From Tetradesmus obliquus (taxonomy: Eukaryota > Chlorophyta > Chlorophyceae > Sphaeropleales > Scenedesmaceae), in assembly GCA_030272155.1 (NCBI GenBank), contig CP126203.1, positions 1,178,001 through 1,242,000 of the forward strand: a stretch of DNA of 64,000 bases, read 5' to 3'. Below are positions 1 through 31,745 of this stretch, one piece after another; within the stretch, counting starts at the first letter, position 1; each line of letters opens with the position of its first letter. Below the pieces are notes generated by a model that was given only the letters and a program-made list of their open reading frames with translations, searched no databases and had not been told where the DNA came from. Position numbers and translations under genes: made by a program.

Positions 1-1408
1 TCTACTGCAAGTTCACCACCGGCACAACAGACAACATTGACCACGTTGGCAACCCCAACACACCATACTATGTGAGTGTGTGCTGCTATTACTTAGATGC
101 GCGCCATTGAAAGACATGCCAGCTGTTGCGTTCTGTGTACACACAACGTGGCAGTGCATCTCGCAGTGCCTCAGGGAAGGCGCGCTGCACACCGCGGCCT
201 GCGCTGACCATAACAGCAGAGTAGCTTGGTGACAGCACAATGACACCACCCCCAGCAGCAAGCTGGAAACCAGTCTCCAGGGAATCCTGCCAGTCACTTT
301 CACATGTGCGCACCCGCAGCACACTGCCGCCTGCTGGCAGGAACTTGGCATACGCAGCAGCACAGAAGGCAACGTCGCGCTGCAACAGCTTCTCTGTGCT
401 GTTGTCATACATACCAGTGTCATGGCATGTCCCATCTGCTTGAATCAGCACGCTGCGCTGCGCATGCAAGAAATCGACCCGGCCTCGCCACCACCCTACT
501 GCCACTTGCGCGCACATGCTGTCACATATTCCCAACCTGTACAGCTTGCGCATCAGCTGCTCCTCACTTGCAGGCATGTTGCGTGCGCCTGTGCCACCCA
601 CTTTAGGCATCAAACATGCACACTGCTTGCACTCCAGAGCTGCTTCAGTTGCGGCAGCGCGCGGCTCGCAGAACTTGAAGTGCTGCACACCTGGCAGGCA
701 GCCCGTCATGGCCCAGTACAGTGGCCGCTTGCGTATCCCCAAGCTGATGATCCTGGGCCTGCTTTTACCATCTGCCTCAAGCCTGATGAATGGGCGTCCC
801 TTTTCATCCACTTGCACATTTAGCTGCGCTGCTGCTAACAAGGCTTTCCGCTGCCAACCCGGCAAAACCTGCACCTGCAGTTGAAGAGGCAGAAGAAGAA
901 GAAGAACGTGAAGGCCAAGAGCATGACACAGCTGGAGTTTGTCCACTGCATGAAGGAGCTTGCAGAGAAGGCTAACCAACAGCAGCGCGCGCGCGGCACT
1001 ACGCCGCTGTACATCTTCGACAACCCCAGTGTTCATGTCGGGCAGGATGCCGCAGAGCTCCTAGCTGCAGTTGGCATCAGCCCAGAGCAGGTGCTGCAAA
1101 TTGCACCCTACTCCCCAGACTTCAACCAGCCCATTGAGCATGCATTCGGCAGCCTCAAGGCTAGCTTCCGCAACCATCTGTACAACACCTACCAGCTGAC
1201 TGGTGCAGATGTATCACCGCGTGATCTGCAGCGGACGCTGCGTGACATATTCATGAACATCACACCTGCCTCTGTCATGGCTGATGCACTGAGGCTGCCA
1301 GATTTGTGGGATGTGGTGCGCAGCAGGCTGGACAGGGTGTTTGTATGCCGTGACAACAAGCAGCGCACGGGTACGGCTGGCAACTGGCCTAGGGATGATC
1401 AGCGCTGA
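1..1408 (+). CDS. DDE transposase, 5' part outside window
   Basis: Only the last 71 bases of exon 1 are present (1-71); the intron is 72-880 and exon 2 is 881-1408 with its TGA stop. Exon 2 carries the second Asp (FDNPSVH) and the Glu (SPDFNQPIEH) of the catalytic triad. It is cut by the window edge, not damaged. See the copy at 3500-5715 for the full description. Confidence 0.88.
45..71 (+). other. Coding end of exon 1 before donor at window start
   Basis: The codons for the segment ending NPNTPYY precede GTGAGT at 72-77. This marks the same exon boundary in the window-edge copy. Confidence 0.7.
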
Positions 1409-1596
1409 GCACGCTGCTGCTGCTGCTGCTGCAGGGCTTAGAATGTATATGGCTGCTGGCTGCACTCTAGACAGCTAGCAGCTGTCAGCAGGTCGTTGAT
1501 TGACACTCCCTGCAAGCTCACCTTTCTGACAGCTCCTCTGCTGGTTGGGCTCCTGTGTGTGCGCACCGCACGGCGCCGGCGATGTGCTGGTGCCAT
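89..1596 (-). CDS. Nested antisense nuclease, copy 1
   Basis: Minus-strand gene with exon 1 at 1522-1596, intron 875-1521 and exon 2 at 89-874. Same translation as the copy described at 4396-5903. It lies opposite the intron and exon 2 of the window-edge transposase. Confidence 0.7.
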
Positions 1597-3499
1597 GCTG
1601 TAGCTGGGTGGTTATGTCTCTGTTTTCAACTGTATGCCAGCATGGACAGCCACAGGCATGATAAGTTGATAGATTGTTATCTGATAATAATTGTCAGATG
1701 GTGTATTGGTGCATAGACTGGCCCAGAGTGAAAAGCGCGCGCGCGTGGCAAGGCAGTTCTGCCAGGGCAGCAGTGCTGTTGATGGGCAGTTCACATGCAG
1801 GCGAGTTGAGCCAATGTGCGTGAATGATTGTACTTGTTACGGCTAAAATTAATTATTGTACGTGCTAACATGTGCTTCATGCAGCTCCAGCTACTGAACC
1901 ACACGTTACTTGTCTCAACGGTTGCCCTACCAAGCAGGATGCTTTGATGTTGCTGCACTCTTGGCATTGTAATAACATCTATTCAAGTATTTAATTGAGC
2001 TGACGCACGGCAGGAGAAAGCTGTGTTTGAGTCAGGTAATCCGTGACGGGGAAGTGCTGCCGAATCAGCCACTCTCGATGCAGACAGCTGTCACGCTGCA
2101 AACTTATCCTCATACATAACAGCTGATTCTTACATCTTACTGGGCCGAGAATTTTCTCCGGTGGGACGCCGGGCAGCCAGCCTGGTCACGGAGCCAGTGA
2201 GTCCAAGACACCTGTGCAGGCTATGCCAGCTCGATCGTGCTGCGGCAGCAACAGCAGACAATTCGGATTGCTTTTAAAACGTCTTTCAAGACAAGGCTGT
2301 GCTCTGAATGTGCTTTTGTGAATTTAGCAGCAGCACTGCATGACCACCAGGCTGCTGCTGCTGCTGTCTTGCCTGGCAAAGTGTGCATTCGAAAAACAGA
2401 GGCTACAGCAGGTGACAGCACCCTCCTCTGAGCTGCACTCTGCTGTCTGCTGCTGAATGTGCTGCTGGCCAGGCAGGTCCCAGCAATTGCAAACAACAGT
2501 AATGCAGGATTTGGGACAGCTGCACCACCAGCAGCAGTTGCAGCAGGCCTGCTATAACATAAAAAGGTGGGCAGGCATTTCATCAACTTTGCCCAGAAAC
2601 AGCAGCAGCAGGATTGCAATGCAGGCTGAGAACTGCTGCAGCAAAGGAAGATGTGCATTTTTGCCTTCAGTGGGGTAGGGTACGAACCTAGCATCCCAGA
2701 TATGAGACAAAGCCACATAGCACACAAACAGAAAGCCATGCTGGCACAGCAACCTGCTGCTTGTGGTAGGTACAGCAAGGCACAGCTGCTGAACCTGCTG
2801 CCTTGGTTTGCTTGCATGTCAGCTGTCCTGCAGGCACCTCACCTGCTTGCAGCGCCCGCTCCAAACTGCTAGTTTTTTTCAGCTCCAGAATTCAGCGTGA
2901 TCACACAAGATGAATGTCTGCAGGAGAGTGTGTGGACTGGCAGCACTCAACCAACTGTGCTCAACCACCCTAGCTGCACACGCGCAGCAGCTGCCTGTAA
3001 TGCTGAAACGTTGATCGGTGATAAGCAACAAGATTAGCAGCAGCAGCACAGCGCACAACGTACAGGGCCAGACAGCAGACCGCAACAACAGCGGCAGGGC
3101 ACTTGGCACACCACAGCTGCAGAGCCCGATCAGCCAGCAGGTGCTGCCCAGAAGTAGAAACGGTTACATAAATACATATGTGCAGGCAGCAGCGCCCTAT
3201 AGCAGCAGAAAGCAGCAGATAACAGACCCGCGAAAATTCAAAGAGTCGGGGCGCAGCAGGTGGTTTGCAAGCACTTTACTCAAGTTACACAGCACCCCAT
3301 ATAGTGGCTCAATTTGATTTAGATTCGTTGTTGAAAGTTGCATTTAATGAGTATGCTGCCTTTGCGCTACTTTCGTACCAGTGCCTAGTGAAGGCTGGTC
3401 AAACTCCAGGTTGCTGCAAACATTAGGTTGACCTGACATGTTATTTCTGTTTGCACTGCTAGCAGAAGCACAGCTGACTCCTGCATATGTTTTGAATCC

Positions 3500-5715
3500 A
3501 TGGCTGCAGGGTGGCTGTCCATGGTGCGCAAGCACCCTTTGGGATGGGAGAGCAACCGCAAGTCAACGGGCGCGCGGGTGGCGGCGGTGGTGGCGGTGCT
3601 CACGATGCTAGCCATCGCCGGCAGTCCAAAGGGTGCGGCAGGCTATTACAGAGTACACTTTCCTAAGCATGCTGCTCAAATCAAACAGGACCTGAATTCC
3701 TTCTGCATGACCCACTACAAGAACTTCAAGCAGTATGGCACGGTGGCAACTCCCAAGCACAAGGGCAGACCCCCAAAAGTCCCAGATGACGTGGCATTAA
3801 AGGCCAGTGAAACATTCAAAGCTGGCAAGGTAGTCAAGGCCTACCCAAGTGCAGAAGCAAAGAAGAAAGTCGACGTGCATGTATGGTGGACATCAATCAA
3901 ACTTGCTTGTCAGGAAAATGAGTACCTGGGTGGCCTATGCAGGAAGTACAACATCAGGCCCAAGCAACTGCTGAAGCGCATGAAAGCTGTTGACCCCAAC
4001 CTGGTGCGCAGAAGAATAGATGTGAAGATGGACCTGACAGACAAGCAGAAAGACAGGAGAAAGGCTGCAGCAGAGAGGCTCTACAAGATGTTCCAGGATG
4101 AGCCAGACTTGCTGAGCAGAATTTATTTTGTTGATGAGTGCAAACTCTGGATGTCCAACCTAGCAGGCGGCGCCATCAAGGTGTATTGCGATGCACATGA
4201 TGCAAACGTACATGCTGTGCTACCATGCAAGTGGATGCGCAAGGGCCAGGACAACAAACCAGTCAAGCTACACTTTGTGTGCGCCGTCAACGCGGTGCAC
4301 GGCGCTGTCTACTGCAAGTTCACCACCGGCACAACAGACAACATTGACCACGTTGGCAACCCCAACACACCATACTATGTGAGTGTGTGCTGCTATTACT
4401 TAGATGCGCGCCATTGAAAGACATGCCAGCTGTTGCGTTCTGTGTACACACAACGTGGCAGTGCATCTCGCAGTGCCTCAGGGAAGGCGCGCTGCACACC
4501 GCGGCCTGCGCTGACCATAACAGCAGAGTAGCTTGGTGACAGCACAATGACACCACCCCCAGCAGCAAGCTGGAAACCAGTCTCCAGGGAATCCTGCCAG
4601 TCACTTTCACATGTGCGCACCCGCAGCACACTGCCGCCTGCTGGCAGGAACTTGGCATACGCAGCAGCACAGAAGGCAACGTCGCGCTGCAACAGCTTCT
4701 CTGTGCTGTTGTCATACATACCAGTGTCATGGCATGTCCCATCTGCTTGAATCAGCACGCTGCGCTGCGCATGCAAGAAATCGACCCGGCCTCGCCACCA
4801 CCCTACTGCCACTTGCGCGCACATGCTGTCACATATTCCCAACCTGTACAGCTTGCGCATCAGCTGCTCCTCACTTGCAGGCATGTTGCGTGCGCCTGTG
4901 CCACCCACTTTAGGCATCAAACATGCACACTGCTTGCACTCCAGAGCTGCTTCAGTTGCGGCAGCGCGCGGCTCGCAGAACTTGAAGTGCTGCACACCTG
5001 GCAGGCAGCCCGTCATGGCCCAGTACAGTGGCCGCTTGCGTATCCCCAAGCTGATGATCCTGGGCCTGCTTTTACCATCTGCCTCAAGCCTGATGAATGG
5101 GCGTCCCTTTTCATCCACTTGCACATTTAGCTGCGCTGCTGCTAACAAGGCTTTCCGCTGCCAACCCGGCAAAACCTGCACCTGCAGTTGAAGAGGCAGA
5201 AGAAGAAGAAGAACGTGAAGGCCAAGAGCATGACACAGCTGGAGTTTGTCCACTGCATGAAGGAGCTTGCAGAGAAGGCTAACCAACAGCAGCGCGCGCG
5301 CGGCACTACGCCGCTGTACATCTTCGACAACCCCAGTGTTCATGTCGGGCAGGATGCCGCAGAGCTCCTAGCTGCAGTTGGCATCAGCCCAGAGCAGGTG
5401 CTGCAAATTGCACCCTACTCCCCAGACTTCAACCAGCCCATTGAGCATGCATTCGGCAGCCTCAAGGCTAGCTTCCGCAACCATCTGTACAACACCTACC
5501 AGCTGACTGGTGCAGATGTATCACCGCGTGATCTGCAGCGGACGCTGCGTGACATATTCATGAACATCACACCTGCCTCTGTCATGGCTGATGCACTGAG
5601 GCTGCCAGATTTGTGGGATGTGGTGCGCAGCAGGCTGGACAGGGTGTTTGTATGCCGTGACAACAAGCAGCGCACGGGTACGGCTGGCAACTGGCCTAGG
5701 GATGATCAGCGCTGA
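3500..5715 (+). CDS. Tc1/mariner (IS630-superfamily) DDE transposase, two exons
   Basis: This would be the cut-and-paste transposase of the element, acting in the nucleus on element ends. Exon 1 is 3500-4378 (293 codons) and exon 2 is 5188-5715 (175 codons plus stop), giving 468 residues. The 809-bp intron (GTGAGT...CTGCAG) is in phase 0. An AT-hook-like GRPPK lies at 89-93, followed by a helix-turn-helix-like segment (about 125-165). The triad is D212 (YFVDECKLW), D340 (YIFDNPSVH) and E379 (PYSPDFNQPIEH), with 38 residues between the last two. Without splicing, exon 1 would lack D340 and E379, which supports the intron. A Lys-rich run (KRQKKKKN) follows the junction. The first ATG has a weak context and a hydrophobic stretch (27-41) follows it, so the true start may differ. 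The family call is firm; activity is untested. Confidence 0.9.
4379..4384 (+). other. Splice donor of transposase intron
   Basis: GTGAGT directly after codon 293 (TAT), in phase 0. Reading through instead adds only 12 residues before a stop and leaves the transposase without its second and third catalytic residues. It recurs every 4,307 bp in forward units and mirrored in inverted ones. Confidence 0.75.
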
Positions 5716-5903
5716 GCACGCTGCTGCTGCTGCTGCTGCAGGGCTTAGAATGTATATGGCTGCTGGCTGCACTCTAGACAGCTAGCAGCTGTCAGCAGGT
5801 CGTTGATTGACACTCCCTGCAAGCTCACCTTTCTGACAGCTCCTCTGCTGGTTGGGCTCCTGTGTGTGCGCACCGCACGGCGCCGGCGATGTGCTGGTGC
5901 CAT
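4396..5903 (-). CDS. Candidate Vsr/DUF559-like PD-(D/E)XK endonuclease, two exons, nested antisense
   Basis: Exon 1 (5829-5903, 25 codons) starts at an ATG with A at -3 and G at +4 and an in-frame TAA six codons upstream. It encodes a basic leader (MAPAHRRRRAVR...) and ends at AAG^GTGAGC. Exon 2 (4396-5181, 261 codons) follows a strong polypyrimidine tract and CTGCAG; both sites are phase 0. The 286-residue product shows SEEQLMRKLYRLG (128-140), RVDF (157-160), VLIQADGTCHD (167-177), QRD (190-192) and VLRVR (210-214). This is the order seen in Vsr/DUF559-type nucleases, with Gln where Glu is usual. C94, C107, C110 and C112 could bind metal. It ends in tandem stops (TAA TAG). Exon 2 occupies 786 of the 809 bp of the transposase intron. 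The fold is judged from motifs only. Exon 1 is inferred; without it the ORF runs back into antisense of transposase exon 2. Confidence 0.7.
5182..5187. other. Palindromic CTGCAG used as splice acceptor on both strands
   Basis: On the + strand the AG at 5186-5187 ends the transposase intron and exon 2 begins with TTG at 5188. On the - strand the same six bases end the nuclease intron and nuclease exon 2 begins with GTG at 5181. Both junctions are phase 0. Alternative in-frame acceptors exist 6 bp further into the nuclease exon (GTGCAG) and 12 bp further into transposase exon 2 (GAGGCAG), so exact use needs transcript data. Confidence 0.65.
5188..5216 (-). other. Polypyrimidine tract of nuclease intron, coding Lys-rich run of transposase on the other strand
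   Basis: Read on the - strand this is a run dominated by TTC and CTT just before CAACTGCAG, a strong acceptor context. Read on the + strand the same bases are AAG codons giving KRQKKKKN at the start of transposase exon 2. One stretch therefore serves splicing of one gene and coding of the other, if both models hold. Confidence 0.6.
5720..5739. repeat. GCT triplet microsatellite after transposase stop
   Basis: Twenty bases of uninterrupted GCT repeat begin five bases after the transposase stop codon. The length is the same in the copies I compared, which is notable for a tract type that usually varies. A second GCT run of 16 bases lies at 6658-6673 in the non-coding segment. Confidence 0.9.
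5823..5828 (-). other. Splice donor of nuclease intron
   Basis: On the - strand, AAG^GTGAGC: a near-ideal donor directly after codon 25 of the basic leader exon. The intron it opens (5182-5828, 647 bp) contains all of transposase exon 2. Confidence 0.6.
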
Positions 5904-7806
5904 GCTGTAGCTGGGTGGTTATGTCTCTGTTTTCAACTGTATGCCAGCATGGACAGCCACAGGCATGATAAGTTGATAGATTGTTATCTGATAATAATTG
6001 TCAGATGGTGTATTGGTGCATAGACTGGCCCAGAGTGAAAAGCGCGCGCGCGTGGCAAGGCAGTTCTGCCAGGGCAGCAGTGCTGTTGATGGGCAGTTCA
6101 CATGCAGGCGAGTTGAGCCAATGTGCGTGAATGATTGTACTTGTTACGGCTAAAATTAATTATTGTACGTGCTAACATGTGCTTCATGCAGCTCCAGCTA
6201 CTGAACCACACGTTACTTGTCTCAACGGTTGCCCTACCAAGCAGGATGCTTTGATGTTGCTGCACTCTTGGCATTGTAATAACATCTATTCAAGTATTTA
6301 ATTGAGCTGACGCACGGCAGGAGAAAGCTGTGTTTGAGTCAGGTAATCCGTGACGGGGAAGTGCTGCCGAATCAGCCACTCTCGATGCAGACAGCTGTCA
6401 CGCTGCAAACTTATCCTCATACATAACAGCTGATTCTTACATCTTACTGGGCCGAGAATTTTCTCCGGTGGGACGCCGGGCAGCCAGCCTGGTCACGGAG
6501 CCAGTGAGTCCAAGACACCTGTGCAGGCTATGCCAGCTCGATCGTGCTGCGGCAGCAACAGCAGACAATTCGGATTGCTTTTAAAACGTCTTTCAAGACA
6601 AGGCTGTGCTCTGAATGTGCTTTTGTGAATTTAGCAGCAGCACTGCATGACCACCAGGCTGCTGCTGCTGCTGTCTTGCCTGGCAAAGTGTGCATTCGAA
6701 AAACAGAGGCTACAGCAGGTGACAGCACCCTCCTCTGAGCTGCACTCTGCTGTCTGCTGCTGAATGTGCTGCTGGCCAGGCAGGTCCCAGCAATTGCAAA
6801 CAACAGTAATGCAGGATTTGGGACAGCTGCACCACCAGCAGCAGTTGCAGCAGGCCTGCTATAACATAAAAAGGTGGGCAGGCATTTCATCAACTTTGCC
6901 CAGAAACAGCAGCAGCAGGATTGCAATGCAGGCTGAGAACTGCTGCAGCAAAGGAAGATGTGCATTTTTGCCTTCAGTGGGGTAGGGTACGAACCTAGCA
7001 TCCCAGATATGAGACAAAGCCACATAGCACACAAACAGAAAGCCATGCTGGCACAGCAACCTGCTGCTTGTGGTAGGTACAGCAAGGCACAGCTGCTGAA
7101 CCTGCTGCCTTGGTTTGCTTGCATGTCAGCTGTCCTGCAGGCACCTCACCTGCTTGCAGCGCCCGCTCCAAACTGCTAGTTTTTTTCAGCTCCAGAATTC
7201 AGCGTGATCACACAAGATGAATGTCTGCAGGAGAGTGTGTGGACTGGCAGCACTCAACCAACTGTGCTCAACCACCCTAGCTGCACACGCGCAGCAGCTG
7301 CCTGTAATGCTGAAACGTTGATCGGTGATAAGCAACAAGATTAGCAGCAGCAGCACAGCGCACAACGTACAGGGCCAGACAGCAGACCGCAACAACAGCG
7401 GCAGGGCACTTGGCACACCACAGCTGCAGAGCCCGATCAGCCAGCAGGTGCTGCCCAGAAGTAGAAACGGTTACATAAATACATATGTGCAGGCAGCAGC
7501 GCCCTATAGCAGCAGAAAGCAGCAGATAACAGACCCGCGAAAATTCAAAGAGTCGGGGCGCAGCAGGTGGTTTGCAAGCACTTTACTCAAGTTACACAGC
7601 ACCCCATATAGTGGCTCAATTTGATTTAGATTCGTTGTTGAAAGTTGCATTTAATGAGTATGCTGCCTTTGCGCTACTTTCGTACCAGTGCCTAGTGAAG
7701 GCTGGTCAAACTCCAGGTTGCTGCAAACATTAGGTTGACCTGACATGTTATTTCTGTTTGCACTGCTAGCAGAAGCACAGCTGACTCCTGCATATGTTTT
7801 GAATCC
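5904..7806. other. Non-coding segment of the repeat unit (about 1.9 kb)
   Basis: I see no convincing gene here. The segment is dense in CAG/CTG words, has a GC alternation at 6043-6051 and an AT-richer stretch at about 5965-6010 and 6145-6170. It should contain the promoters of both genes, but no clear TATA box lies near either ATG; ATAAATA at 7475-7481 is about 330 bp upstream of the next transposase. No terminal inverted repeats were recognised. Equivalent full segments: 1597-3499, 10211-12113, 14518-16420, 18825-20727, 23132-25034, 27439-29341, 31746-33648, 36053-37955, 40360-42262, 44667-46569, 51244-53146 and 55551-57453. Confidence 0.6.
5986..6006. other. Small inverted repeat upstream of nuclease ATG
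   Basis: ATCTGA and TCAGAT flank nine bases, in an AT-rich patch about 85-105 bp upstream of the nuclease start. It could be a protein-binding site or a chance palindrome; nothing else supports a role. Confidence 0.3.
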
Positions 7807-10022
7807 ATGGCTGCAGGGTGGCTGTCCATGGTGCGCAAGCACCCTTTGGGATGGGAGAGCAACCGCAAGTCAACGGGCGCGCGGGTGGCGGCGGTGGTGG
7901 CGGTGCTCACGATGCTAGCCATCGCCGGCAGTCCAAAGGGTGCGGCAGGCTATTACAGAGTACACTTTCCTAAGCATGCTGCTCAAATCAAACAGGACCT
8001 GAATTCCTTCTGCATGACCCACTACAAGAACTTCAAGCAGTATGGCACGGTGGCAACTCCCAAGCACAAGGGCAGACCCCCAAAAGTCCCAGATGACGTG
8101 GCATTAAAGGCCAGTGAAACATTCAAAGCTGGCAAGGTAGTCAAGGCCTACCCAAGTGCAGAAGCAAAGAAGAAAGTCGACGTGCATGTATGGTGGACAT
8201 CAATCAAACTTGCTTGTCAGGAAAATGAGTACCTGGGTGGCCTATGCAGGAAGTACAACATCAGGCCCAAGCAACTGCTGAAGCGCATGAAAGCTGTTGA
8301 CCCCAACCTGGTGCGCAGAAGAATAGATGTGAAGATGGACCTGACAGACAAGCAGAAAGACAGGAGAAAGGCTGCAGCAGAGAGGCTCTACAAGATGTTC
8401 CAGGATGAGCCAGACTTGCTGAGCAGAATTTATTTTGTTGATGAGTGCAAACTCTGGATGTCCAACCTAGCAGGCGGCGCCATCAAGGTGTATTGCGATG
8501 CACATGATGCAAACGTACATGCTGTGCTACCATGCAAGTGGATGCGCAAGGGCCAGGACAACAAACCAGTCAAGCTACACTTTGTGTGCGCCGTCAACGC
8601 GGTGCACGGCGCTGTCTACTGCAAGTTCACCACCGGCACAACAGACAACATTGACCACGTTGGCAACCCCAACACACCATACTATGTGAGTGTGTGCTGC
8701 TATTACTTAGATGCGCGCCATTGAAAGACATGCCAGCTGTTGCGTTCTGTGTACACACAACGTGGCAGTGCATCTCGCAGTGCCTCAGGGAAGGCGCGCT
8801 GCACACCGCGGCCTGCGCTGACCATAACAGCAGAGTAGCTTGGTGACAGCACAATGACACCACCCCCAGCAGCAAGCTGGAAACCAGTCTCCAGGGAATC
8901 CTGCCAGTCACTTTCACATGTGCGCACCCGCAGCACACTGCCGCCTGCTGGCAGGAACTTGGCATACGCAGCAGCACAGAAGGCAACGTCGCGCTGCAAC
9001 AGCTTCTCTGTGCTGTTGTCATACATACCAGTGTCATGGCATGTCCCATCTGCTTGAATCAGCACGCTGCGCTGCGCATGCAAGAAATCGACCCGGCCTC
9101 GCCACCACCCTACTGCCACTTGCGCGCACATGCTGTCACATATTCCCAACCTGTACAGCTTGCGCATCAGCTGCTCCTCACTTGCAGGCATGTTGCGTGC
9201 GCCTGTGCCACCCACTTTAGGCATCAAACATGCACACTGCTTGCACTCCAGAGCTGCTTCAGTTGCGGCAGCGCGCGGCTCGCAGAACTTGAAGTGCTGC
9301 ACACCTGGCAGGCAGCCCGTCATGGCCCAGTACAGTGGCCGCTTGCGTATCCCCAAGCTGATGATCCTGGGCCTGCTTTTACCATCTGCCTCAAGCCTGA
9401 TGAATGGGCGTCCCTTTTCATCCACTTGCACATTTAGCTGCGCTGCTGCTAACAAGGCTTTCCGCTGCCAACCCGGCAAAACCTGCACCTGCAGTTGAAG
9501 AGGCAGAAGAAGAAGAAGAACGTGAAGGCCAAGAGCATGACACAGCTGGAGTTTGTCCACTGCATGAAGGAGCTTGCAGAGAAGGCTAACCAACAGCAGC
9601 GCGCGCGCGGCACTACGCCGCTGTACATCTTCGACAACCCCAGTGTTCATGTCGGGCAGGATGCCGCAGAGCTCCTAGCTGCAGTTGGCATCAGCCCAGA
9701 GCAGGTGCTGCAAATTGCACCCTACTCCCCAGACTTCAACCAGCCCATTGAGCATGCATTCGGCAGCCTCAAGGCTAGCTTCCGCAACCATCTGTACAAC
9801 ACCTACCAGCTGACTGGTGCAGATGTATCACCGCGTGATCTGCAGCGGACGCTGCGTGACATATTCATGAACATCACACCTGCCTCTGTCATGGCTGATG
9901 CACTGAGGCTGCCAGATTTGTGGGATGTGGTGCGCAGCAGGCTGGACAGGGTGTTTGTATGCCGTGACAACAAGCAGCGCACGGGTACGGCTGGCAACTG
10001 GCCTAGGGATGATCAGCGCTGA
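7807..10022 (+). CDS. DDE transposase, copy 2
   Basis: Exons 7807-8685 and 9495-10022, intron 8686-9494. The translation is identical to the copy at 3500-5715, with the triad and splice sites intact. Confidence 0.9.
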
Positions 10023-10210
10023 GCACGCTGCTGCTGCTGCTGCTGCAGGGCTTAGAATGTATATGGCTGCTGGCTGCACTCTAGACAGCTAGCAGCTGTC
10101 AGCAGGTCGTTGATTGACACTCCCTGCAAGCTCACCTTTCTGACAGCTCCTCTGCTGGTTGGGCTCCTGTGTGTGCGCACCGCACGGCGCCGGCGATGTG
10201 CTGGTGCCAT
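8703..10210 (-). CDS. Nested antisense nuclease, copy 3
   Basis: Exon 1 at 10136-10210 and exon 2 at 8703-9488. Same translation as the copy at 4396-5903. Confidence 0.7.
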
Positions 10211-12113
10211 GCTGTAGCTGGGTGGTTATGTCTCTGTTTTCAACTGTATGCCAGCATGGACAGCCACAGGCATGATAAGTTGATAGATTGTTATCTGATA
10301 ATAATTGTCAGATGGTGTATTGGTGCATAGACTGGCCCAGAGTGAAAAGCGCGCGCGCGTGGCAAGGCAGTTCTGCCAGGGCAGCAGTGCTGTTGATGGG
10401 CAGTTCACATGCAGGCGAGTTGAGCCAATGTGCGTGAATGATTGTACTTGTTACGGCTAAAATTAATTATTGTACGTGCTAACATGTGCTTCATGCAGCT
10501 CCAGCTACTGAACCACACGTTACTTGTCTCAACGGTTGCCCTACCAAGCAGGATGCTTTGATGTTGCTGCACTCTTGGCATTGTAATAACATCTATTCAA
10601 GTATTTAATTGAGCTGACGCACGGCAGGAGAAAGCTGTGTTTGAGTCAGGTAATCCGTGACGGGGAAGTGCTGCCGAATCAGCCACTCTCGATGCAGACA
10701 GCTGTCACGCTGCAAACTTATCCTCATACATAACAGCTGATTCTTACATCTTACTGGGCCGAGAATTTTCTCCGGTGGGACGCCGGGCAGCCAGCCTGGT
10801 CACGGAGCCAGTGAGTCCAAGACACCTGTGCAGGCTATGCCAGCTCGATCGTGCTGCGGCAGCAACAGCAGACAATTCGGATTGCTTTTAAAACGTCTTT
10901 CAAGACAAGGCTGTGCTCTGAATGTGCTTTTGTGAATTTAGCAGCAGCACTGCATGACCACCAGGCTGCTGCTGCTGCTGTCTTGCCTGGCAAAGTGTGC
11001 ATTCGAAAAACAGAGGCTACAGCAGGTGACAGCACCCTCCTCTGAGCTGCACTCTGCTGTCTGCTGCTGAATGTGCTGCTGGCCAGGCAGGTCCCAGCAA
11101 TTGCAAACAACAGTAATGCAGGATTTGGGACAGCTGCACCACCAGCAGCAGTTGCAGCAGGCCTGCTATAACATAAAAAGGTGGGCAGGCATTTCATCAA
11201 CTTTGCCCAGAAACAGCAGCAGCAGGATTGCAATGCAGGCTGAGAACTGCTGCAGCAAAGGAAGATGTGCATTTTTGCCTTCAGTGGGGTAGGGTACGAA
11301 CCTAGCATCCCAGATATGAGACAAAGCCACATAGCACACAAACAGAAAGCCATGCTGGCACAGCAACCTGCTGCTTGTGGTAGGTACAGCAAGGCACAGC
11401 TGCTGAACCTGCTGCCTTGGTTTGCTTGCATGTCAGCTGTCCTGCAGGCACCTCACCTGCTTGCAGCGCCCGCTCCAAACTGCTAGTTTTTTTCAGCTCC
11501 AGAATTCAGCGTGATCACACAAGATGAATGTCTGCAGGAGAGTGTGTGGACTGGCAGCACTCAACCAACTGTGCTCAACCACCCTAGCTGCACACGCGCA
11601 GCAGCTGCCTGTAATGCTGAAACGTTGATCGGTGATAAGCAACAAGATTAGCAGCAGCAGCACAGCGCACAACGTACAGGGCCAGACAGCAGACCGCAAC
11701 AACAGCGGCAGGGCACTTGGCACACCACAGCTGCAGAGCCCGATCAGCCAGCAGGTGCTGCCCAGAAGTAGAAACGGTTACATAAATACATATGTGCAGG
11801 CAGCAGCGCCCTATAGCAGCAGAAAGCAGCAGATAACAGACCCGCGAAAATTCAAAGAGTCGGGGCGCAGCAGGTGGTTTGCAAGCACTTTACTCAAGTT
11901 ACACAGCACCCCATATAGTGGCTCAATTTGATTTAGATTCGTTGTTGAAAGTTGCATTTAATGAGTATGCTGCCTTTGCGCTACTTTCGTACCAGTGCCT
12001 AGTGAAGGCTGGTCAAACTCCAGGTTGCTGCAAACATTAGGTTGACCTGACATGTTATTTCTGTTTGCACTGCTAGCAGAAGCACAGCTGACTCCTGCAT
12101 ATGTTTTGAATCC

Positions 12114-14329
12114 ATGGCTGCAGGGTGGCTGTCCATGGTGCGCAAGCACCCTTTGGGATGGGAGAGCAACCGCAAGTCAACGGGCGCGCGGGTGGCGGCG
12201 GTGGTGGCGGTGCTCACGATGCTAGCCATCGCCGGCAGTCCAAAGGGTGCGGCAGGCTATTACAGAGTACACTTTCCTAAGCATGCTGCTCAAATCAAAC
12301 AGGACCTGAATTCCTTCTGCATGACCCACTACAAGAACTTCAAGCAGTATGGCACGGTGGCAACTCCCAAGCACAAGGGCAGACCCCCAAAAGTCCCAGA
12401 TGACGTGGCATTAAAGGCCAGTGAAACATTCAAAGCTGGCAAGGTAGTCAAGGCCTACCCAAGTGCAGAAGCAAAGAAGAAAGTCGACGTGCATGTATGG
12501 TGGACATCAATCAAACTTGCTTGTCAGGAAAATGAGTACCTGGGTGGCCTATGCAGGAAGTACAACATCAGGCCCAAGCAACTGCTGAAGCGCATGAAAG
12601 CTGTTGACCCCAACCTGGTGCGCAGAAGAATAGATGTGAAGATGGACCTGACAGACAAGCAGAAAGACAGGAGAAAGGCTGCAGCAGAGAGGCTCTACAA
12701 GATGTTCCAGGATGAGCCAGACTTGCTGAGCAGAATTTATTTTGTTGATGAGTGCAAACTCTGGATGTCCAACCTAGCAGGCGGCGCCATCAAGGTGTAT
12801 TGCGATGCACATGATGCAAACGTACATGCTGTGCTACCATGCAAGTGGATGCGCAAGGGCCAGGACAACAAACCAGTCAAGCTACACTTTGTGTGCGCCG
12901 TCAACGCGGTGCACGGCGCTGTCTACTGCAAGTTCACCACCGGCACAACAGACAACATTGACCACGTTGGCAACCCCAACACACCATACTATGTGAGTGT
13001 GTGCTGCTATTACTTAGATGCGCGCCATTGAAAGACATGCCAGCTGTTGCGTTCTGTGTACACACAACGTGGCAGTGCATCTCGCAGTGCCTCAGGGAAG
13101 GCGCGCTGCACACCGCGGCCTGCGCTGACCATAACAGCAGAGTAGCTTGGTGACAGCACAATGACACCACCCCCAGCAGCAAGCTGGAAACCAGTCTCCA
13201 GGGAATCCTGCCAGTCACTTTCACATGTGCGCACCCGCAGCACACTGCCGCCTGCTGGCAGGAACTTGGCATACGCAGCAGCACAGAAGGCAACGTCGCG
13301 CTGCAACAGCTTCTCTGTGCTGTTGTCATACATACCAGTGTCATGGCATGTCCCATCTGCTTGAATCAGCACGCTGCGCTGCGCATGCAAGAAATCGACC
13401 CGGCCTCGCCACCACCCTACTGCCACTTGCGCGCACATGCTGTCACATATTCCCAACCTGTACAGCTTGCGCATCAGCTGCTCCTCACTTGCAGGCATGT
13501 TGCGTGCGCCTGTGCCACCCACTTTAGGCATCAAACATGCACACTGCTTGCACTCCAGAGCTGCTTCAGTTGCGGCAGCGCGCGGCTCGCAGAACTTGAA
13601 GTGCTGCACACCTGGCAGGCAGCCCGTCATGGCCCAGTACAGTGGCCGCTTGCGTATCCCCAAGCTGATGATCCTGGGCCTGCTTTTACCATCTGCCTCA
13701 AGCCTGATGAATGGGCGTCCCTTTTCATCCACTTGCACATTTAGCTGCGCTGCTGCTAACAAGGCTTTCCGCTGCCAACCCGGCAAAACCTGCACCTGCA
13801 GTTGAAGAGGCAGAAGAAGAAGAAGAACGTGAAGGCCAAGAGCATGACACAGCTGGAGTTTGTCCACTGCATGAAGGAGCTTGCAGAGAAGGCTAACCAA
13901 CAGCAGCGCGCGCGCGGCACTACGCCGCTGTACATCTTCGACAACCCCAGTGTTCATGTCGGGCAGGATGCCGCAGAGCTCCTAGCTGCAGTTGGCATCA
14001 GCCCAGAGCAGGTGCTGCAAATTGCACCCTACTCCCCAGACTTCAACCAGCCCATTGAGCATGCATTCGGCAGCCTCAAGGCTAGCTTCCGCAACCATCT
14101 GTACAACACCTACCAGCTGACTGGTGCAGATGTATCACCGCGTGATCTGCAGCGGACGCTGCGTGACATATTCATGAACATCACACCTGCCTCTGTCATG
14201 GCTGATGCACTGAGGCTGCCAGATTTGTGGGATGTGGTGCGCAGCAGGCTGGACAGGGTGTTTGTATGCCGTGACAACAAGCAGCGCACGGGTACGGCTG
14301 GCAACTGGCCTAGGGATGATCAGCGCTGA
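12114..14329 (+). CDS. DDE transposase, copy 3
   Basis: Exons 12114-12992 and 13802-14329, intron 12993-13801. The translation is identical to the reference copy. The nearest difference in this unit is non-coding, G to C at 15016. Confidence 0.9.
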
Positions 14330-14517
14330 GCACGCTGCTGCTGCTGCTGCTGCAGGGCTTAGAATGTATATGGCTGCTGGCTGCACTCTAGACAGCTAGC
14401 AGCTGTCAGCAGGTCGTTGATTGACACTCCCTGCAAGCTCACCTTTCTGACAGCTCCTCTGCTGGTTGGGCTCCTGTGTGTGCGCACCGCACGGCGCCGG
14501 CGATGTGCTGGTGCCAT
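13010..14517 (-). CDS. Nested antisense nuclease, copy 4
   Basis: Exon 1 at 14443-14517 and exon 2 at 13010-13795. Same translation as the reference copy. Confidence 0.7.
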
Positions 14518-16420
14518 GCTGTAGCTGGGTGGTTATGTCTCTGTTTTCAACTGTATGCCAGCATGGACAGCCACAGGCATGATAAGTTGATAGATTGTTA
14601 TCTGATAATAATTGTCAGATGGTGTATTGGTGCATAGACTGGCCCAGAGTGAAAAGCGCGCGCGCGTGGCAAGGCAGTTCTGCCAGGGCAGCAGTGCTGT
14701 TGATGGGCAGTTCACATGCAGGCGAGTTGAGCCAATGTGCGTGAATGATTGTACTTGTTACGGCTAAAATTAATTATTGTACGTGCTAACATGTGCTTCA
14801 TGCAGCTCCAGCTACTGAACCACACGTTACTTGTCTCAACGGTTGCCCTACCAAGCAGGATGCTTTGATGTTGCTGCACTCTTGGCATTGTAATAACATC
14901 TATTCAAGTATTTAATTGAGCTGACGCACGGCAGGAGAAAGCTGTGTTTGAGTCAGGTAATCCGTGACGGGGAAGTGCTGCCGAATCAGCCACTCTCGAT
15001 GCAGACAGCTGTCACCCTGCAAACTTATCCTCATACATAACAGCTGATTCTTACATCTTACTGGGCCGAGAATTTTCTCCGGTGGGACGCCGGGCAGCCA
15101 GCCTGGTCACGGAGCCAGTGAGTCCAAGACACCTGTGCAGGCTATGCCAGCTCGATCGTGCTGCGGCAGCAACAGCAGACAATTCGGATTGCTTTTAAAA
15201 CGTCTTTCAAGACAAGGCTGTGCTCTGAATGTGCTTTTGTGAATTTAGCAGCAGCACTGCATGACCACCAGGCTGCTGCTGCTGCTGTCTTGCCTGGCAA
15301 AGTGTGCATTCGAAAAACAGAGGCTACAGCAGGTGACAGCACCCTCCTCTGAGCTGCACTCTGCTGTCTGCTGCTGAATGTGCTGCTGGCCAGGCAGGTC
15401 CCAGCAATTGCAAACAACAGTAATGCAGGATTTGGGACAGCTGCACCACCAGCAGCAGTTGCAGCAGGCCTGCTATAACATAAAAAGGTGGGCAGGCATT
15501 TCATCAACTTTGCCCAGAAACAGCAGCAGCAGGATTGCAATGCAGGCTGAGAACTGCTGCAGCAAAGGAAGATGTGCATTTTTGCCTTCAGTGGGGTAGG
15601 GTACGAACCTAGCATCCCAGATATGAGACAAAGCCACATAGCACACAAACAGAAAGCCATGCTGGCACAGCAACCTGCTGCTTGTGGTAGGTACAGCAAG
15701 GCACAGCTGCTGAACCTGCTGCCTTGGTTTGCTTGCATGTCAGCTGTCCTGCAGGCACCTCACCTGCTTGCAGCGCCCGCTCCAAACTGCTAGTTTTTTT
15801 CAGCTCCAGAATTCAGCGTGATCACACAAGATGAATGTCTGCAGGAGAGTGTGTGGACTGGCAGCACTCAACCAACTGTGCTCAACCACCCTAGCTGCAC
15901 ACGCGCAGCAGCTGCCTGTAATGCTGAAACGTTGATCGGTGATAAGCAACAAGATTAGCAGCAGCAGCACAGCGCACAACGTACAGGGCCAGACAGCAGA
16001 CCGCAACAACAGCGGCAGGGCACTTGGCACACCACAGCTGCAGAGCCCGATCAGCCAGCAGGTGCTGCCCAGAAGTAGAAACGGTTACATAAATACATAT
16101 GTGCAGGCAGCAGCGCCCTATAGCAGCAGAAAGCAGCAGATAACAGACCCGCGAAAATTCAAAGAGTCGGGGCGCAGCAGGTGGTTTGCAAGCACTTTAC
16201 TCAAGTTACACAGCACCCCATATAGTGGCTCAATTTGATTTAGATTCGTTGTTGAAAGTTGCATTTAATGAGTATGCTGCCTTTGCGCTACTTTCGTACC
16301 AGTGCCTAGTGAAGGCTGGTCAAACTCCAGGTTGCTGCAAACATTAGGTTGACCTGACATGTTATTTCTGTTTGCACTGCTAGCAGAAGCACAGCTGACT
16401 CCTGCATATGTTTTGAATCC

Positions 16421-18636
16421 ATGGCTGCAGGGTGGCTGTCCATGGTGCGCAAGCACCCTTTGGGATGGGAGAGCAACCGCAAGTCAACGGGCGCGCGGGT
16501 GGCGGCGGTGGTGGCGGTGCTCACGATGCTAGCCATCGCCGGCAGTCCAAAGGGTGCGGCAGGCTATTACAGAGTACACTTTCCTAAGCATGCTGCTCAA
16601 ATCAAACAGGACCTGAATTCCTTCTGCATGACCCACTACAAGAACTTCAAGCAGTATGGCACGGTGGCAACTCCCAAGCACAAGGGCAGACCCCCAAAAG
16701 TCCCAGATGACGTGGCATTAAAGGCCAGTGAAACATTCAAAGCTGGCAAGGTAGTCAAGGCCTACCCAAGTGCAGAAGCAAAGAAGAAAGTCGACGTGCA
16801 TGTATGGTGGACATCAATCAAACTTGCTTGTCAGGAAAATGAGTACCTGGGTGGCCTATGCAGGAAGTACAACATCAGGCCCAAGCAACTGCTGAAGCGC
16901 ATGAAAGCTGTTGACCCCAACCTGGTGCGCAGAAGAATAGATGTGAAGATGGACCTGACAGACAAGCAGAAAGACAGGAGAAAGGCTGCAGCAGAGAGGC
17001 TCTACAAGATGTTCCAGGATGAGCCAGACTTGCTGAGCAGAATTTATTTTGTTGATGAGTGCAAACTCTGGATGTCCAACCTAGCAGGCGGCGCCATCAA
17101 GGTGTATTGCGATGCACATGATGCAAACGTACATGCTGTGCTACCATGCAAGTGGATGCGCAAGGGCCAGGACAACAAACCAGTCAAGCTACACTTTGTG
17201 TGCGCCGTCAACGCGGTGCACGGCGCTGTCTACTGCAAGTTCACCACCGGCACAACAGACAACATTGACCACGTTGGCAACCCCAACACACCATACTATG
17301 TGAGTGTGTGCTGCTATTACTTAGATGCGCGCCATTGAAAGACATGCCAGCTGTTGCGTTCTGTGTACACACAACGTGGCAGTGCATCTCGCAGTGCCTC
17401 AGGGAAGGCGCGCTGCACACCGCGGCCTGCGCTGACCATAACAGCAGAGTAGCTTGGTGACAGCACAATGACACCACCCCCAGCAGCAAGCTGGAAACCA
17501 GTCTCCAGGGAATCCTGCCAGTCACTTTCACATGTGCGCACCCGCAGCACACTGCCGCCTGCTGGCAGGAACTTGGCATACGCAGCAGCACAGAAGGCAA
17601 CGTCGCGCTGCAACAGCTTCTCTGTGCTGTTGTCATACATACCAGTGTCATGGCATGTCCCATCTGCTTGAATCAGCACGCTGCGCTGCGCATGCAAGAA
17701 ATCGACCCGGCCTCGCCACCACCCTACTGCCACTTGCGCGCACATGCTGTCACATATTCCCAACCTGTACAGCTTGCGCATCAGCTGCTCCTCACTTGCA
17801 GGCATGTTGCGTGCGCCTGTGCCACCCACTTTAGGCATCAAACATGCACACTGCTTGCACTCCAGAGCTGCTTCAGTTGCGGCAGCGCGCGGCTCGCAGA
17901 ACTTGAAGTGCTGCACACCTGGCAGGCAGCCCGTCATGGCCCAGTACAGTGGCCGCTTGCGTATCCCCAAGCTGATGATCCTGGGCCTGCTTTTACCATC
18001 TGCCTCAAGCCTGATGAATGGGCGTCCCTTTTCATCCACTTGCACATTTAGCTGCGCTGCTGCTAACAAGGCTTTCCGCTGCCAACCCGGCAAAACCTGC
18101 ACCTGCAGTTGAAGAGGCAGAAGAAGAAGAAGAACGTGAAGGCCAAGAGCATGACACAGCTGGAGTTTGTCCACTGCATGAAGGAGCTTGCAGAGAAGGC
18201 TAACCAACAGCAGCGCGCGCGCGGCACTACGCCGCTGTACATCTTCGACAACCCCAGTGTTCATGTCGGGCAGGATGCCGCAGAGCTCCTAGCTGCAGTT
18301 GGCATCAGCCCAGAGCAGGTGCTGCAAATTGCACCCTACTCCCCAGACTTCAACCAGCCCATTGAGCATGCATTCGGCAGCCTCAAGGCTAGCTTCCGCA
18401 ACCATCTGTACAACACCTACCAGCTGACTGGTGCAGATGTATCACCGCGTGATCTGCAGCGGACGCTGCGTGACATATTCATGAACATCACACCTGCCTC
18501 TGTCATGGCTGATGCACTGAGGCTGCCAGATTTGTGGGATGTGGTGCGCAGCAGGCTGGACAGGGTGTTTGTATGCCGTGACAACAAGCAGCGCACGGGT
18601 ACGGCTGGCAACTGGCCTAGGGATGATCAGCGCTGA
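16421..18636 (+). CDS. DDE transposase, copy 4
   Basis: Exons 16421-17299 and 18109-18636, intron 17300-18108. Translation identical to the reference copy. Confidence 0.9.
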
Positions 18637-18824
18637 GCACGCTGCTGCTGCTGCTGCTGCAGGGCTTAGAATGTATATGGCTGCTGGCTGCACTCTAGAC
18701 AGCTAGCAGCTGTCAGCAGGTCGTTGATTGACACTCCCTGCAAGCTCACCTTTCTGACAGCTCCTCTGCTGGTTGGGCTCCTGTGTGTGCGCACCGCACG
18801 GCGCCGGCGATGTGCTGGTGCCAT
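17317..18824 (-). CDS. Nested antisense nuclease, copy 5
   Basis: Exon 1 at 18750-18824 and exon 2 at 17317-18102. Same translation as the reference copy. Confidence 0.7.
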
Positions 18825-20727
18825 GCTGTAGCTGGGTGGTTATGTCTCTGTTTTCAACTGTATGCCAGCATGGACAGCCACAGGCATGATAAGTTGATAG
18901 ATTGTTATCTGATAATAATTGTCAGATGGTGTATTGGTGCATAGACTGGCCCAGAGTGAAAAGCGCGCGCGCGTGGCAAGGCAGTTCTGCCAGGGCAGCA
19001 GTGCTGTTGATGGGCAGTTCACATGCAGGCGAGTTGAGCCAATGTGCGTGAATGATTGTACTTGTTACGGCTAAAATTAATTATTGTACGTGCTAACATG
19101 TGCTTCATGCAGCTCCAGCTACTGAACCACACGTTACTTGTCTCAACGGTTGCCCTACCAAGCAGGATGCTTTGATGTTGCTGCACTCTTGGCATTGTAA
19201 TAACATCTATTCAAGTATTTAATTGAGCTGACGCACGGCAGGAGAAAGCTGTGTTTGAGTCAGGTAATCCGTGACGGGGAAGTGCTGCCGAATCAGCCAC
19301 TCTCGATGCAGACAGCTGTCACGCTGCAAACTTATCCTCATACATAACAGCTGATTCTTACATCTTACTGGGCCGAGAATTTTCTCCGGTGGGACGCCGG
19401 GCAGCCAGCCTGGTCACGGAGCCAGTGAGTCCAAGACACCTGTGCAGGCTATGCCAGCTCGATCGTGCTGCGGCAGCAACAGCAGACAATTCGGATTGCT
19501 TTTAAAACGTCTTTCAAGACAAGGCTGTGCTCTGAATGTGCTTTTGTGAATTTAGCAGCAGCACTGCATGACCACCAGGCTGCTGCTGCTGCTGTCTTGC
19601 CTGGCAAAGTGTGCATTCGAAAAACAGAGGCTACAGCAGGTGACAGCACCCTCCTCTGAGCTGCACTCTGCTGTCTGCTGCTGAATGTGCTGCTGGCCAG
19701 GCAGGTCCCAGCAATTGCAAACAACAGTAATGCAGGATTTGGGACAGCTGCACCACCAGCAGCAGTTGCAGCAGGCCTGCTATAACATAAAAAGGTGGGC
19801 AGGCATTTCATCAACTTTGCCCAGAAACAGCAGCAGCAGGATTGCAATGCAGGCTGAGAACTGCTGCAGCAAAGGAAGATGTGCATTTTTGCCTTCAGTG
19901 GGGTAGGGTACGAACCTAGCATCCCAGATATGAGACAAAGCCACATAGCACACAAACAGAAAGCCATGCTGGCACAGCAACCTGCTGCTTGTGGTAGGTA
20001 CAGCAAGGCACAGCTGCTGAACCTGCTGCCTTGGTTTGCTTGCATGTCAGCTGTCCTGCAGGCACCTCACCTGCTTGCAGCGCCCGCTCCAAACTGCTAG
20101 TTTTTTTCAGCTCCAGAATTCAGCGTGATCACACAAGATGAATGTCTGCAGGAGAGTGTGTGGACTGGCAGCACTCAACCAACTGTGCTCAACCACCCTA
20201 GCTGCACACGCGCAGCAGCTGCCTGTAATGCTGAAACGTTGATCGGTGATAAGCAACAAGATTAGCAGCAGCAGCACAGCGCACAACGTACAGGGCCAGA
20301 CAGCAGACCGCAACAACAGCGGCAGGGCACTTGGCACACCACAGCTGCAGAGCCCGATCAGCCAGCAGGTGCTGCCCAGAAGTAGAAACGGTTACATAAA
20401 TACATATGTGCAGGCAGCAGCGCCCTATAGCAGCAGAAAGCAGCAGATAACAGACCCGCGAAAATTCAAAGAGTCGGGGCGCAGCAGGTGGTTTGCAAGC
20501 ACTTTACTCAAGTTACACAGCACCCCATATAGTGGCTCAATTTGATTTAGATTCGTTGTTGAAAGTTGCATTTAATGAGTATGCTGCCTTTGCGCTACTT
20601 TCGTACCAGTGCCTAGTGAAGGCTGGTCAAACTCCAGGTTGCTGCAAACATTAGGTTGACCTGACATGTTATTTCTGTTTGCACTGCTAGCAGAAGCACA
20701 GCTGACTCCTGCATATGTTTTGAATCC

Positions 20728-22943: not shown

Positions 22944-23131
22944 GCACGCTGCTGCTGCTGCTGCTGCAGGGCTTAGAATGTATATGGCTGCTGGCTGCAC
23001 TCTAGACAGCTAGCAGCTGTCAGCAGGTCGTTGATTGACACTCCCTGCAAGCTCACCTTTCTGACAGCTCCTCTGCTGGTTGGGCTCCTGTGTGTGCGCA
23101 CCGCACGGCGCCGGCGATGTGCTGGTGCCAT
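21624..23131 (-). CDS. Nested antisense nuclease, copy 6
   Basis: Exon 1 at 23057-23131 and exon 2 at 21624-22409. Same translation as the reference copy. Confidence 0.7.
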
Positions 23132-27250: not shown

Positions 27251-27438
27251 GCACGCTGCTGCTGCTGCTGCTGCAGGGCTTAGAATGTATATGGCTGCTG
27301 GCTGCACTCTAGACAGCTAGCAGCTGTCAGCAGGTCGTTGATTGACACTCCCTGCAAGCTCACCTTTCTGACAGCTCCTCTGCTGGTTGGGCTCCTGTGT
27401 GTGCGCACCGCACGGCGCCGGCGATGTGCTGGTGCCAT
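25931..27438 (-). CDS. Nested antisense nuclease, copy 7
   Basis: Exon 1 at 27364-27438 and exon 2 at 25931-26716. Same translation as the reference copy. Confidence 0.7.
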
Positions 27439-31557: not shown

Positions 31558-31745
31558 GCACGCTGCTGCTGCTGCTGCTGCAGGGCTTAGAATGTATATG
31601 GCTGCTGGCTGCACTCTAGACAGCTAGCAGCTGTCAGCAGGTCGTTGATTGACACTCCCTGCAAGCTCACCTTTCTGACAGCTCCTCTGCTGGTTGGGCT
31701 CCTGTGTGTGCGCACCGCACGGCGCCGGCGATGTGCTGGTGCCAT
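30238..31745 (-). CDS. Nested antisense nuclease, copy 8
   Basis: Exon 1 at 31671-31745 and exon 2 at 30238-31023. Same translation as the reference copy. The base change at 31513 falls in its intron, where it alters the transposase on the other strand but not the nuclease. Confidence 0.7.

What the first reader, a model, noticed from the sequence alone, without database searches (positions are those of the whole stretch)
3500..5903. Interlocked antisense genes: transposase and nuclease each carry an exon inside the other's intron
On the + strand the order is transposase exon 1, nuclease exon 2 (antisense), transposase exon 2, nuclease exon 1 (antisense), with coding gaps of 17, 6 and 113 bp and no coding overlap. 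The nuclease exon fills 97% of the transposase intron, and transposase exon 2 fills 82% of the nuclease intron. All four splice junctions are phase 0 with GT-AG ends. Pre-mRNAs would be extensively complementary while the spliced coding sequences would not. I know of no Tc1/mariner element described with this layout, but I cannot search for one.
Basis: partly seen in the sequence, partly recalled or inferred. Interest (0 to 1): 0.92.

Follow-up and report, generated by a model that had tools for sequence, protein, structure and literature searches.

The report
Transposon with two interlocked antisense genes
A mobile DNA element from an unidentified eukaryote carries a transposase gene and a probable nuclease gene on opposite strands, each with an exon inside the other's intron; some distant relatives keep this layout, and the element has multiplied into a long head-to-tail array.

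Summary
TPase exons 3500-4378 and 5188-5715 (+) and nuclease exons 5903-5829 and 5181-4396 (-) have the stated gaps (17, 6, 113 bp), phase-0 GT-AG junctions and open frames. Both predicted introns end in the same palindrome, CTGCAG (5182-5187).

The layout is not a one-off. Searches found 19 nuclease, 11 exon-1 and 13 exon-2 relatives. In three of them, at about 57-74% identity, ORFs running past splice sites encode the partner gene in antisense, best in the predicted frame.

The surroundings change the picture. The window is an almost perfect tandem array of a 4307-bp unit. Its two orientation switches are the ends of one self-insertion: a 3-bp GAA target duplication and imperfect 25-bp inverted repeats bounding a 723-bp segment. 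The element is therefore (terminal repeat-internal region)n, as in KolobokP, which also pairs a transposase with an antisense nuclease. Here the transposase is IS630/Tc1-mariner-like and the nuclease only weakly Vsr/DUF559-like. The duplication is not TA, so I do not file it as Tc1/mariner.

Splicing, nuclease activity and any regulatory role are inferred. New variant of a known kind.

The parts
3500..4378 (+). Transposase exon 1 (N-terminal helical DNA-binding region, first catalytic D)
   Evidence: Open, phase 0 to GT at 4379; 11 relatives; profile matches Mos1 87-168 at E 0.016
4379..5187 (+). Transposase intron (809 bp, GTGAGT..CTGCAG)
   Evidence: best plus donor in 2.9 kb, narrowly; V-S (GTN AGY or TCN) directly after exon 1 in 10 of 11 relatives
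5188..5715 (+). Transposase exon 2 (second catalytic D and E, DD38E)
   Evidence: DDE_3 E 1.2e-6; 12 of 14 rows match DDE_3 at E up to 0.1; 13 relatives; spacing 38
5829..5903 (-). Nuclease exon 1 (25 aa, basic)
   Evidence: Only ATG-started phase-0 exon with donor score above 5; donor position supported by one relative's read-through; coding not testable
5182..5828 (-). Nuclease intron (647 bp), contains TPase exon 2
   Evidence: 84% pyrimidine in the 25 nt before the acceptor
4396..5181 (-). Nuclease exon 2 (weakly Vsr/DUF559-like)
   Evidence: 19 relatives at 55-98% identity; 26 invariant columns among 19 aligned rows; DUF559 in 11 of 19 rows at E up to 1, best 0.0018; below the 20.6-bit cut-off in 6 of 6 matches rescanned
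5182..5187 (.). CTGCAG palindrome, predicted 3' splice site of both introns
   Evidence: protein letters of the two relatives whose ORFs cross it, P0007 and P0033, are compatible with it
2668..3390 (.). Terminal-repeat-like segment (723 bp) bounded by imperfect inverted repeats
   Evidence: Both insertion junctions in the array fall exactly on its ends; inverted repeat I3
2668..2692 (+). Left inverted repeat CAGTGGGGTAGGGTACGAACCTAGC
   Evidence: 17 of 25 matches to the right repeat; 9 of 200000 random pairs do as well
3366..3390 (-). Right inverted repeat (reads CACTAGGCACTGGTACGAAAGTAGC)
3391..6974 (.). Internal region (3584 bp) with both genes
   Evidence: Partition
47046..59384 (-). Inverted part of the array; its ends are the insertion junctions with GAA duplication (unit positions 3973-3975)
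1..64000 (.). Tandem array of the 4307-bp unit (+ 1-47045, - 47046-59384, + 59385-64000)
   Evidence: 8 single-base differences in all

Best explanation
This is an autonomous, composite-like eukaryotic DNA transposon. Its 723-bp terminal direct repeats, each bounded by short imperfect inverted repeats, enclose a 3.6-kb internal region, and it has multiplied here into a (terminal repeat-internal)n array. The internal region encodes a DD38E transposase of the IS630/Tc1-mariner catalytic type and, on the other strand, a probable Vsr-like nuclease. Each gene has one phase-0 spliceosomal intron, and each intron holds an exon of the other; both introns are predicted to end in one shared palindromic CTGCAG. 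Shown: the DNA layout, conservation of both proteins, conservation of the interlock in some diverged relatives, the array, the inverted repeats and the 3-bp duplication. Inferred: splicing; that the transposase acts on the inverted repeats; that the nuclease cuts element DNA so that repair from a neighbouring unit adds copies (the 'induced unequal crossover' proposed for KolobokP); that the interlock keeps the genes together and makes one copy transcribe only one of them well at a time.
For: Gene models. Conserved proteins. Interlock in relatives: P0007 antisense reads TPase exon 2 (score 36.0; 0 of 200 shuffles; best of 533 control pieces 19.1); P0021 and P0022 exon-1 read-through reads the nuclease C-terminus (0 of 200 each); P0042 is compatible with a nuclease donor 3 nt from expectation. 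TPase identity: DDE_3, Mos1/SETMAR, paired-domain-like N-terminus (weak). Array, junctions, inverted repeats and GAA duplication. KolobokP parallel.
Against: No RNA evidence for any splice site. Nuclease assignment is weak: no Pfam match for the window's own protein; in 10 relatives rescanned, 6 match DUF559 and all 6 below its cut-off; low-confidence model with no PDB match at E 0.001. The target duplication rests on one insertion, which must also have been partly inverted afterwards to give the observed order. No DNA of relatives could be fetched, so nuclease exon 1 and the relatives' terminal repeats are untested. In the most diverged TPase tested (P0029, 35%) the read-through showed no nuclease, and P0027 was ambiguous.
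Confidence: 0.72

Rival explanations
1. Frozen accident: a nuclease gene inserted into the transposase intron and recruited an upstream exon by chance. The interlock has no regulatory meaning and persists because the element is compact and cannot be pulled apart. (This shares the anatomy of the best explanation and differs only on regulation.)
For: The nuclease exon fills 97% of the intron; the divergent P0029 read-through shows no nuclease, as if the intron could predate it (one protein); KolobokP has an antisense nuclease downstream of its transposase.
Against: None direct.
Confidence: 0.45
2. The nuclease is a single-exon gene starting at ATG 5343, in the antisense of TPase exon 2, so it overlaps rather than interlocks.
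For: The frame is open from 5367 with an in-frame ATG at 5343; P0007 is also open upstream of the acceptor.
Against: The extension is simply TPase exon 2 in antisense. The ORFs of 7 of 19 relatives start exactly at the predicted exon-2 border with V, and P0008 (V) and P0010 (M) one residue off; the rest start later, except P0007, whose extension holds no Met. A good acceptor (84% pyrimidine) lies at the border. Gene-caller starts are only indirect evidence.
Confidence: 0.12
3. The array is an assembly artefact or a circular episome read as a concatemer.
For: Copies differ by only 8 bases in about 14.9 units; 9 of the 25 relatives' longest contigs that reach 3 kb are 4202-4527 long, as a circle or any collapsed repeat would give.
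Against: Insertion junctions with a target duplication and exactly paired inverted repeats lie inside the array; one variant is shared by two copies. No array end or host flank is in the window, so chromosomal location is not shown.
Confidence: 0.15

Closest known systems
KolobokP (Kojima and Bao 2022, PMC9587614; passages and sections 9 and 15 read)
   Same: Terminal direct repeats with own inverted repeats, internal region, tandem multimers; DDD/E transposase plus a nuclease on the complementary strand; target duplications of solo repeats mainly 3-4 or 4-5 bp.
   Different: Transposase here matches DDE_3/Mos1; the nuclease weakly resembles Vsr/DUF559, not shown to be a His-Me finger; the paper places the nuclease downstream of the transposase, and a term search of it found no 'antisense', 'opposite' or 'nested'.
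IS630-Tc1-mariner elements, e.g. DD38E/Intruder (PMC7731502, passages read)
   Same: DD38E spacing, mariner-like catalytic core, possibly a paired-domain-like N-terminus.
   Different: Intruder is 1.5-1.7 kb with one ORF and TIRs; here a 4.3-kb unit, an intron, a second gene and a GAA rather than TA duplication. Same spacing does not show membership. Tc1-like elements with spliceosomal introns are in print (title seen only in the reference list of PMC8533490).
ISL2EU (PHIS superfamily; PMC4482050, passages read)
   Same: Two-gene DNA transposon with a transposase and a nuclease-domain protein (YqaJ).
   Different: Different transposase and nuclease families; the term search found no 'intron', 'opposite' or 'orientation' in the text.
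Interleaved and convergent antisense gene pairs of host genomes (PMC2291194, PMC2330155, PMC6545626; passages read)
   Same: Opposite-strand genes with coding sequence in the partner's intron; one paper calls nested and interleaved genes fairly common in metazoan genomes.
   Different: Those are host genes; here both genes belong to one compact mobile element and the two introns share one predicted 3' splice palindrome.

Membership tests
IS630-Tc1-mariner | DDE/D catalytic core of the DDE_3/mariner type | tested here: met
   DDE_3 E 1.2e-6, 28.9 bits against a cut-off of 28.6; Mos1 E 0.016 and SETMAR E 0.024 by profile; DD38E
IS630-Tc1-mariner | TA target-site duplication (named for most of these families in PMC8533490, passage) | tested here: not met
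   The only insertion junction pair gives GAA; one insertion only
IS630-Tc1-mariner | Bipartite paired-domain-like DNA-binding region | tested here: inconclusive
KolobokP | TIR-bounded terminal direct repeats around an internal region, with multimers | tested here: met
   723-bp segment with paired ends; array; no monomer with host flanks seen
KolobokP | Kolobok transposase | tested here: inconclusive
   Pfam gives only DDE_3 for the spliced transposase at E up to 1, which speaks against; no Kolobok sequence was compared
KolobokP | His-Me finger nuclease with eight conserved H/C | tested here: inconclusive
   No His-Me family among the 7 families listed for 19 rows; weak DUF559 instead; His/Cys pattern not aligned
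Vsr/DUF559 nucleases | Profile match above the curated cut-off | tested here: not met
   No match for the window's own protein at E up to 1; of 10 relatives rescanned 6 match at 12.6-16.6 bits, cut-off 20.6; the best of 19 rows has E 0.0018. A source names 6 of 19 relatives very-short-patch-repair endonuclease
Vsr/DUF559 nucleases | PD-(D/E)XK fold | tested here: inconclusive
   Helix-strand-strand-strand-helix-strand order in a model of mean pLDDT 53.8; no PDB match at E 0.001

The most novel reading that the evidence does not exclude
A transposon lineage in which the interlock is a built-in switch: one palindromic 3' splice site and convergent transcription force each copy to make either transposase (movement) or nuclease (array growth), and the tandem array lets neighbouring copies take different states. 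It would also be an independent origin of the KolobokP life style with unrelated enzymes.
Probability: 0.3. Interest if true: 0.88.

Novelty: new variant of a known kind. Interest (0 to 1): 0.74.

Why it matters
Two genes that cannot easily be separated, deleted singly or transcribed at full length together from one copy are a clean natural case for antisense overlap under selection. Because diverged relatives exist, the layout can be followed through evolution. The same package (terminal repeats, array, transposase, antisense nuclease) as KolobokP, apparently with different enzyme families, would point to a general way for DNA transposons to combine movement with nuclease-driven amplification.

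Tried and rejected
Relatives' DNA: the search for related loci in viral contigs with nuclease, exon-1 and exon-2 alignments and in genome contigs with exon 1 gave none; blastn of 3300-6400 against phages and tblastn of P0006 against plasmids gave no match. Hence dN/dS and the relatives' exon 1, UTRs and ends could not be tested. The protein searches scored only the 8000 candidates sharing most words, so their lists may be incomplete.

A 13-bp perfect inverted repeat around both genes (3511-3523/5948-5960) was taken as a possible end and rejected: 119 of 300 simulated units hold one as good.

Array differences (8 in about 14.9 units; 2 coding, both amino-acid changes) are too few to show selection. 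The nuclease model is too poor to use. Pfam hits such as UBact, DUF6239 and others were dismissed as chance. PHROGs and NCBIfam gave nothing useful.

Rows dropped: the near-duplicate P0002 was left out of the nuclease alignments (18 of 19 hits used). In the exon-1 antisense test 7 of 12 ORFs were too short and 5 were tested: window (own nuclease among the references, a positive control), P0021 and P0022 positive; P0027 ambiguous (2 of 200, not at the C-terminus); P0029 negative. That test used the last 70 residues of each nuclease and assumed a stop codon right after each ORF's last residue; the P0042 test assumed that its read-through comes from one lost base.

TGTAA poly(A) signals (recalled as the usual green-algal signal) lie at 6275 (+) and 3646 (-); a 5-mer in an unknown host is weak evidence.

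Full report
WHAT IS THERE. The finding's coordinates hold. Transposase (TPase) exon 1 is 3500-4378, intron 4379-5187 (GTGAGT..CTGCAG, 809 bp), exon 2 5188-5715, giving 468 aa. Nuclease exon 1 is 5903-5829, intron 5828-5182 (GTGAGC..CTGCAG, 647 bp), exon 2 5181-4396, giving 286 aa. Gaps are 17, 6 and 113 bp, and the intron fillings 97.2% and 81.6%. The 6-bp gap is the palindrome CTGCAG: the last six bases of the TPase intron on one strand are the last six of the nuclease intron on the other. The codon registers of TPase exon 2 and nuclease exon 2 coincide there. An alternative nuclease acceptor 6 nt downstream would keep the interlock but not the shared site.

CHANCE AND SPLICE SIGNALS. The plus donor 4379 is narrowly the highest-scoring GT between 3491 and 6400 (3.85 against 3.58 for the next). 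On the minus strand the donor at 5828 is second in about 2.2 kb (the best, 7149, lies in the next unit's non-genic part). It is the only donor above my threshold that closes an ATG-started, phase-0 exon. The minus acceptor has 84% pyrimidine in the 25 nt before it, made by the antisense of a lysine-rich stretch of TPase exon 2; the plus acceptor has 52%. The minus frame is open for 323 codons; 300 simulated units reached at most 269. No RNA evidence exists here.

RELATIVES. The protein search found 19 nuclease relatives, 17 of them 55-69% identical, 11 exon-1 relatives at 34-93% and 13 exon-2 relatives at 56-99%. They come without genomic context, from mostly short contigs. In 10 of 11 exon-1 relatives the ORF continues with V-S, which a GT-AGY donor would give, right where the intron starts (P0029 has V-G). 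No contig DNA of any relative was found.

IS THE INTERLOCK CONSERVED? Because some relatives' ORFs run past a splice site, their protein letters constrain the antisense strand. I back-translated each extension degenerately and asked what the other strand can encode. The 32 residues upstream of the nuclease in P0007 (59% identical) read in antisense as TPase exon 2 in the predicted frame: 23 of 32 positions compatible with P0033, score 36.0 against at most 14.6 in 200 shuffles; in the two other frames 152 and 41 of 200 shuffles did as well. The best of 533 control pieces scored 19.1. The extensions of exon 1 in P0021 (73%) and P0022 (68%) read as the nuclease C-terminus in the predicted frame (6 of 8 and 7 of 8 positions; 0 of 200 shuffles each); in the other frames 15 and 75 (P0021) and 85 and 7 (P0022) of 200 shuffles did as well. 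P0007 and P0033, the two relatives that cross the acceptor, are compatible with CTGCAG there. P0042 reads through the TPase stop and is compatible with the nuclease donor GGTGAGC 3 nt from the expected place (31 of 2000 shuffles did as well within 10 nt). Of 12 exon-1 ORFs 7 were too short to test, the window itself was a positive control, P0027 was ambiguous and P0029 (35% identical) negative. So the layout is old relative to 57-74% protein identity but may not reach the most diverged transposases. Equal contig lengths suggest that P0003 and P0039 (2947), and P0014 and P0036 (6206), lie together; this was not verified.

THE SURROUNDINGS. The window is a tandem array of a 4307-bp unit, with 8 single-base differences in about 14.9 copies: plus orientation 1-47045, minus 47046-59384, plus 59385-64000. 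At the first switch the plus array stops at unit position 3975 (..CTGCTGAA) and is followed by position 3390 read backwards (CACTAGGC..). The second switch, read in reverse complement, is ..CCCCACTG (position 2668) followed by GAAGCGC (position 3973 on). Together these are the left and right flanks of one insertion with a 3-bp duplication, GAA, inside a TPase exon 1 of the array; the second junction was later turned round, most simply by recombination between inverted units (inference). The two element ends pair exactly with each other as an inverted repeat, 17 of 25 positions, reached by 9 of 200000 random position pairs; a separate repeat search had listed the same arms (I3, third of 63 pairs). 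The unit thus splits into a 723-bp segment bounded by inverted repeats (2668-3390) and a 3584-bp internal region with both genes. Of the 43 relatives' longest contigs 25 reach 3 kb, and 9 of these are 4202-4527 long (tail probability about 6e-6 under a rough 1/L-squared length model, with a range chosen around the unit; lengths that occur twice in the list lie outside that range). This fits a conserved unit length but cannot tell tandem or circular from dispersed repeats.

COMPARISON. KolobokP (PMC9587614; sections 9 and 15 and passages read) has terminal direct repeats with their own inverted repeats, tandem multimers, target duplications of mainly 3-4 or 4-5 bp, and a transposase with a nuclease on the complementary strand. 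Its authors propose nuclease-induced unequal crossover for the multimers. This element works like KolobokP, but by Pfam its transposase is DDE_3 and its nuclease, if anything, DUF559-like; no Kolobok sequence was compared, so it is not filed as KolobokP. It is not filed as Tc1/mariner either, because the one target duplication is not TA. Interleaved genes are known in metazoa (PMC2291194, passage), and two-gene transposons with nuclease domains are known (ISL2EU, PMC4482050, passages). In ten paper searches no listed title or abstract start described a transposon with interlocked antisense genes. Several lists were cut to 10-20 papers (of up to 371), and the library lacks most subscription papers; Repbase reports were not searched.

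MECHANISM. Most likely the transposase acts on the inverted repeats and the nuclease promotes copy gain by cutting within the array (inference). The interlock, whatever its origin, means convergent transcription through at least 1320 bp (4396-5715), so one copy cannot easily make both full pre-mRNAs at once, and loss of either gene by deletion damages the other. Whether this is a regulatory switch or a frozen accident cannot be told from sequence; I give the accident more weight than the switch. The finding is real and interesting as a new variant of known kinds.

Noticed in passing
1-64000: Whole window is a near-perfect 4307-bp tandem array with two orientation switches; no tRNA and no Rfam match at gathering scores.
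   Followed up: yes
47045/47046 and 59384/59385: Orientation switches are insertion junctions with a GAA duplication in a transposase exon 1 and exactly paired inverted repeats.
   Followed up: yes
6528-7145 (-): A long minus-strand ORF (about 198 codons from its first Met) in the non-genic part of the unit; probably chance in CAG-rich sequence, relatives not searched.
   Followed up: no
3511-3523 / 5948-5960: 13-bp perfect inverted repeat flanking both genes; chance level.
   Followed up: yes
unit position 2931 (copies at 51812 and 59648): A T>C variant shared by a minus and a plus copy either side of a switch, suggesting real variants rather than read errors.
   Followed up: partly
P0028-P0030: A more diverged transposase group (33-35% identity); P0028 and P0030 stop right after the V-S donor codons, and P0029 shows no antisense nuclease.
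   Followed up: partly
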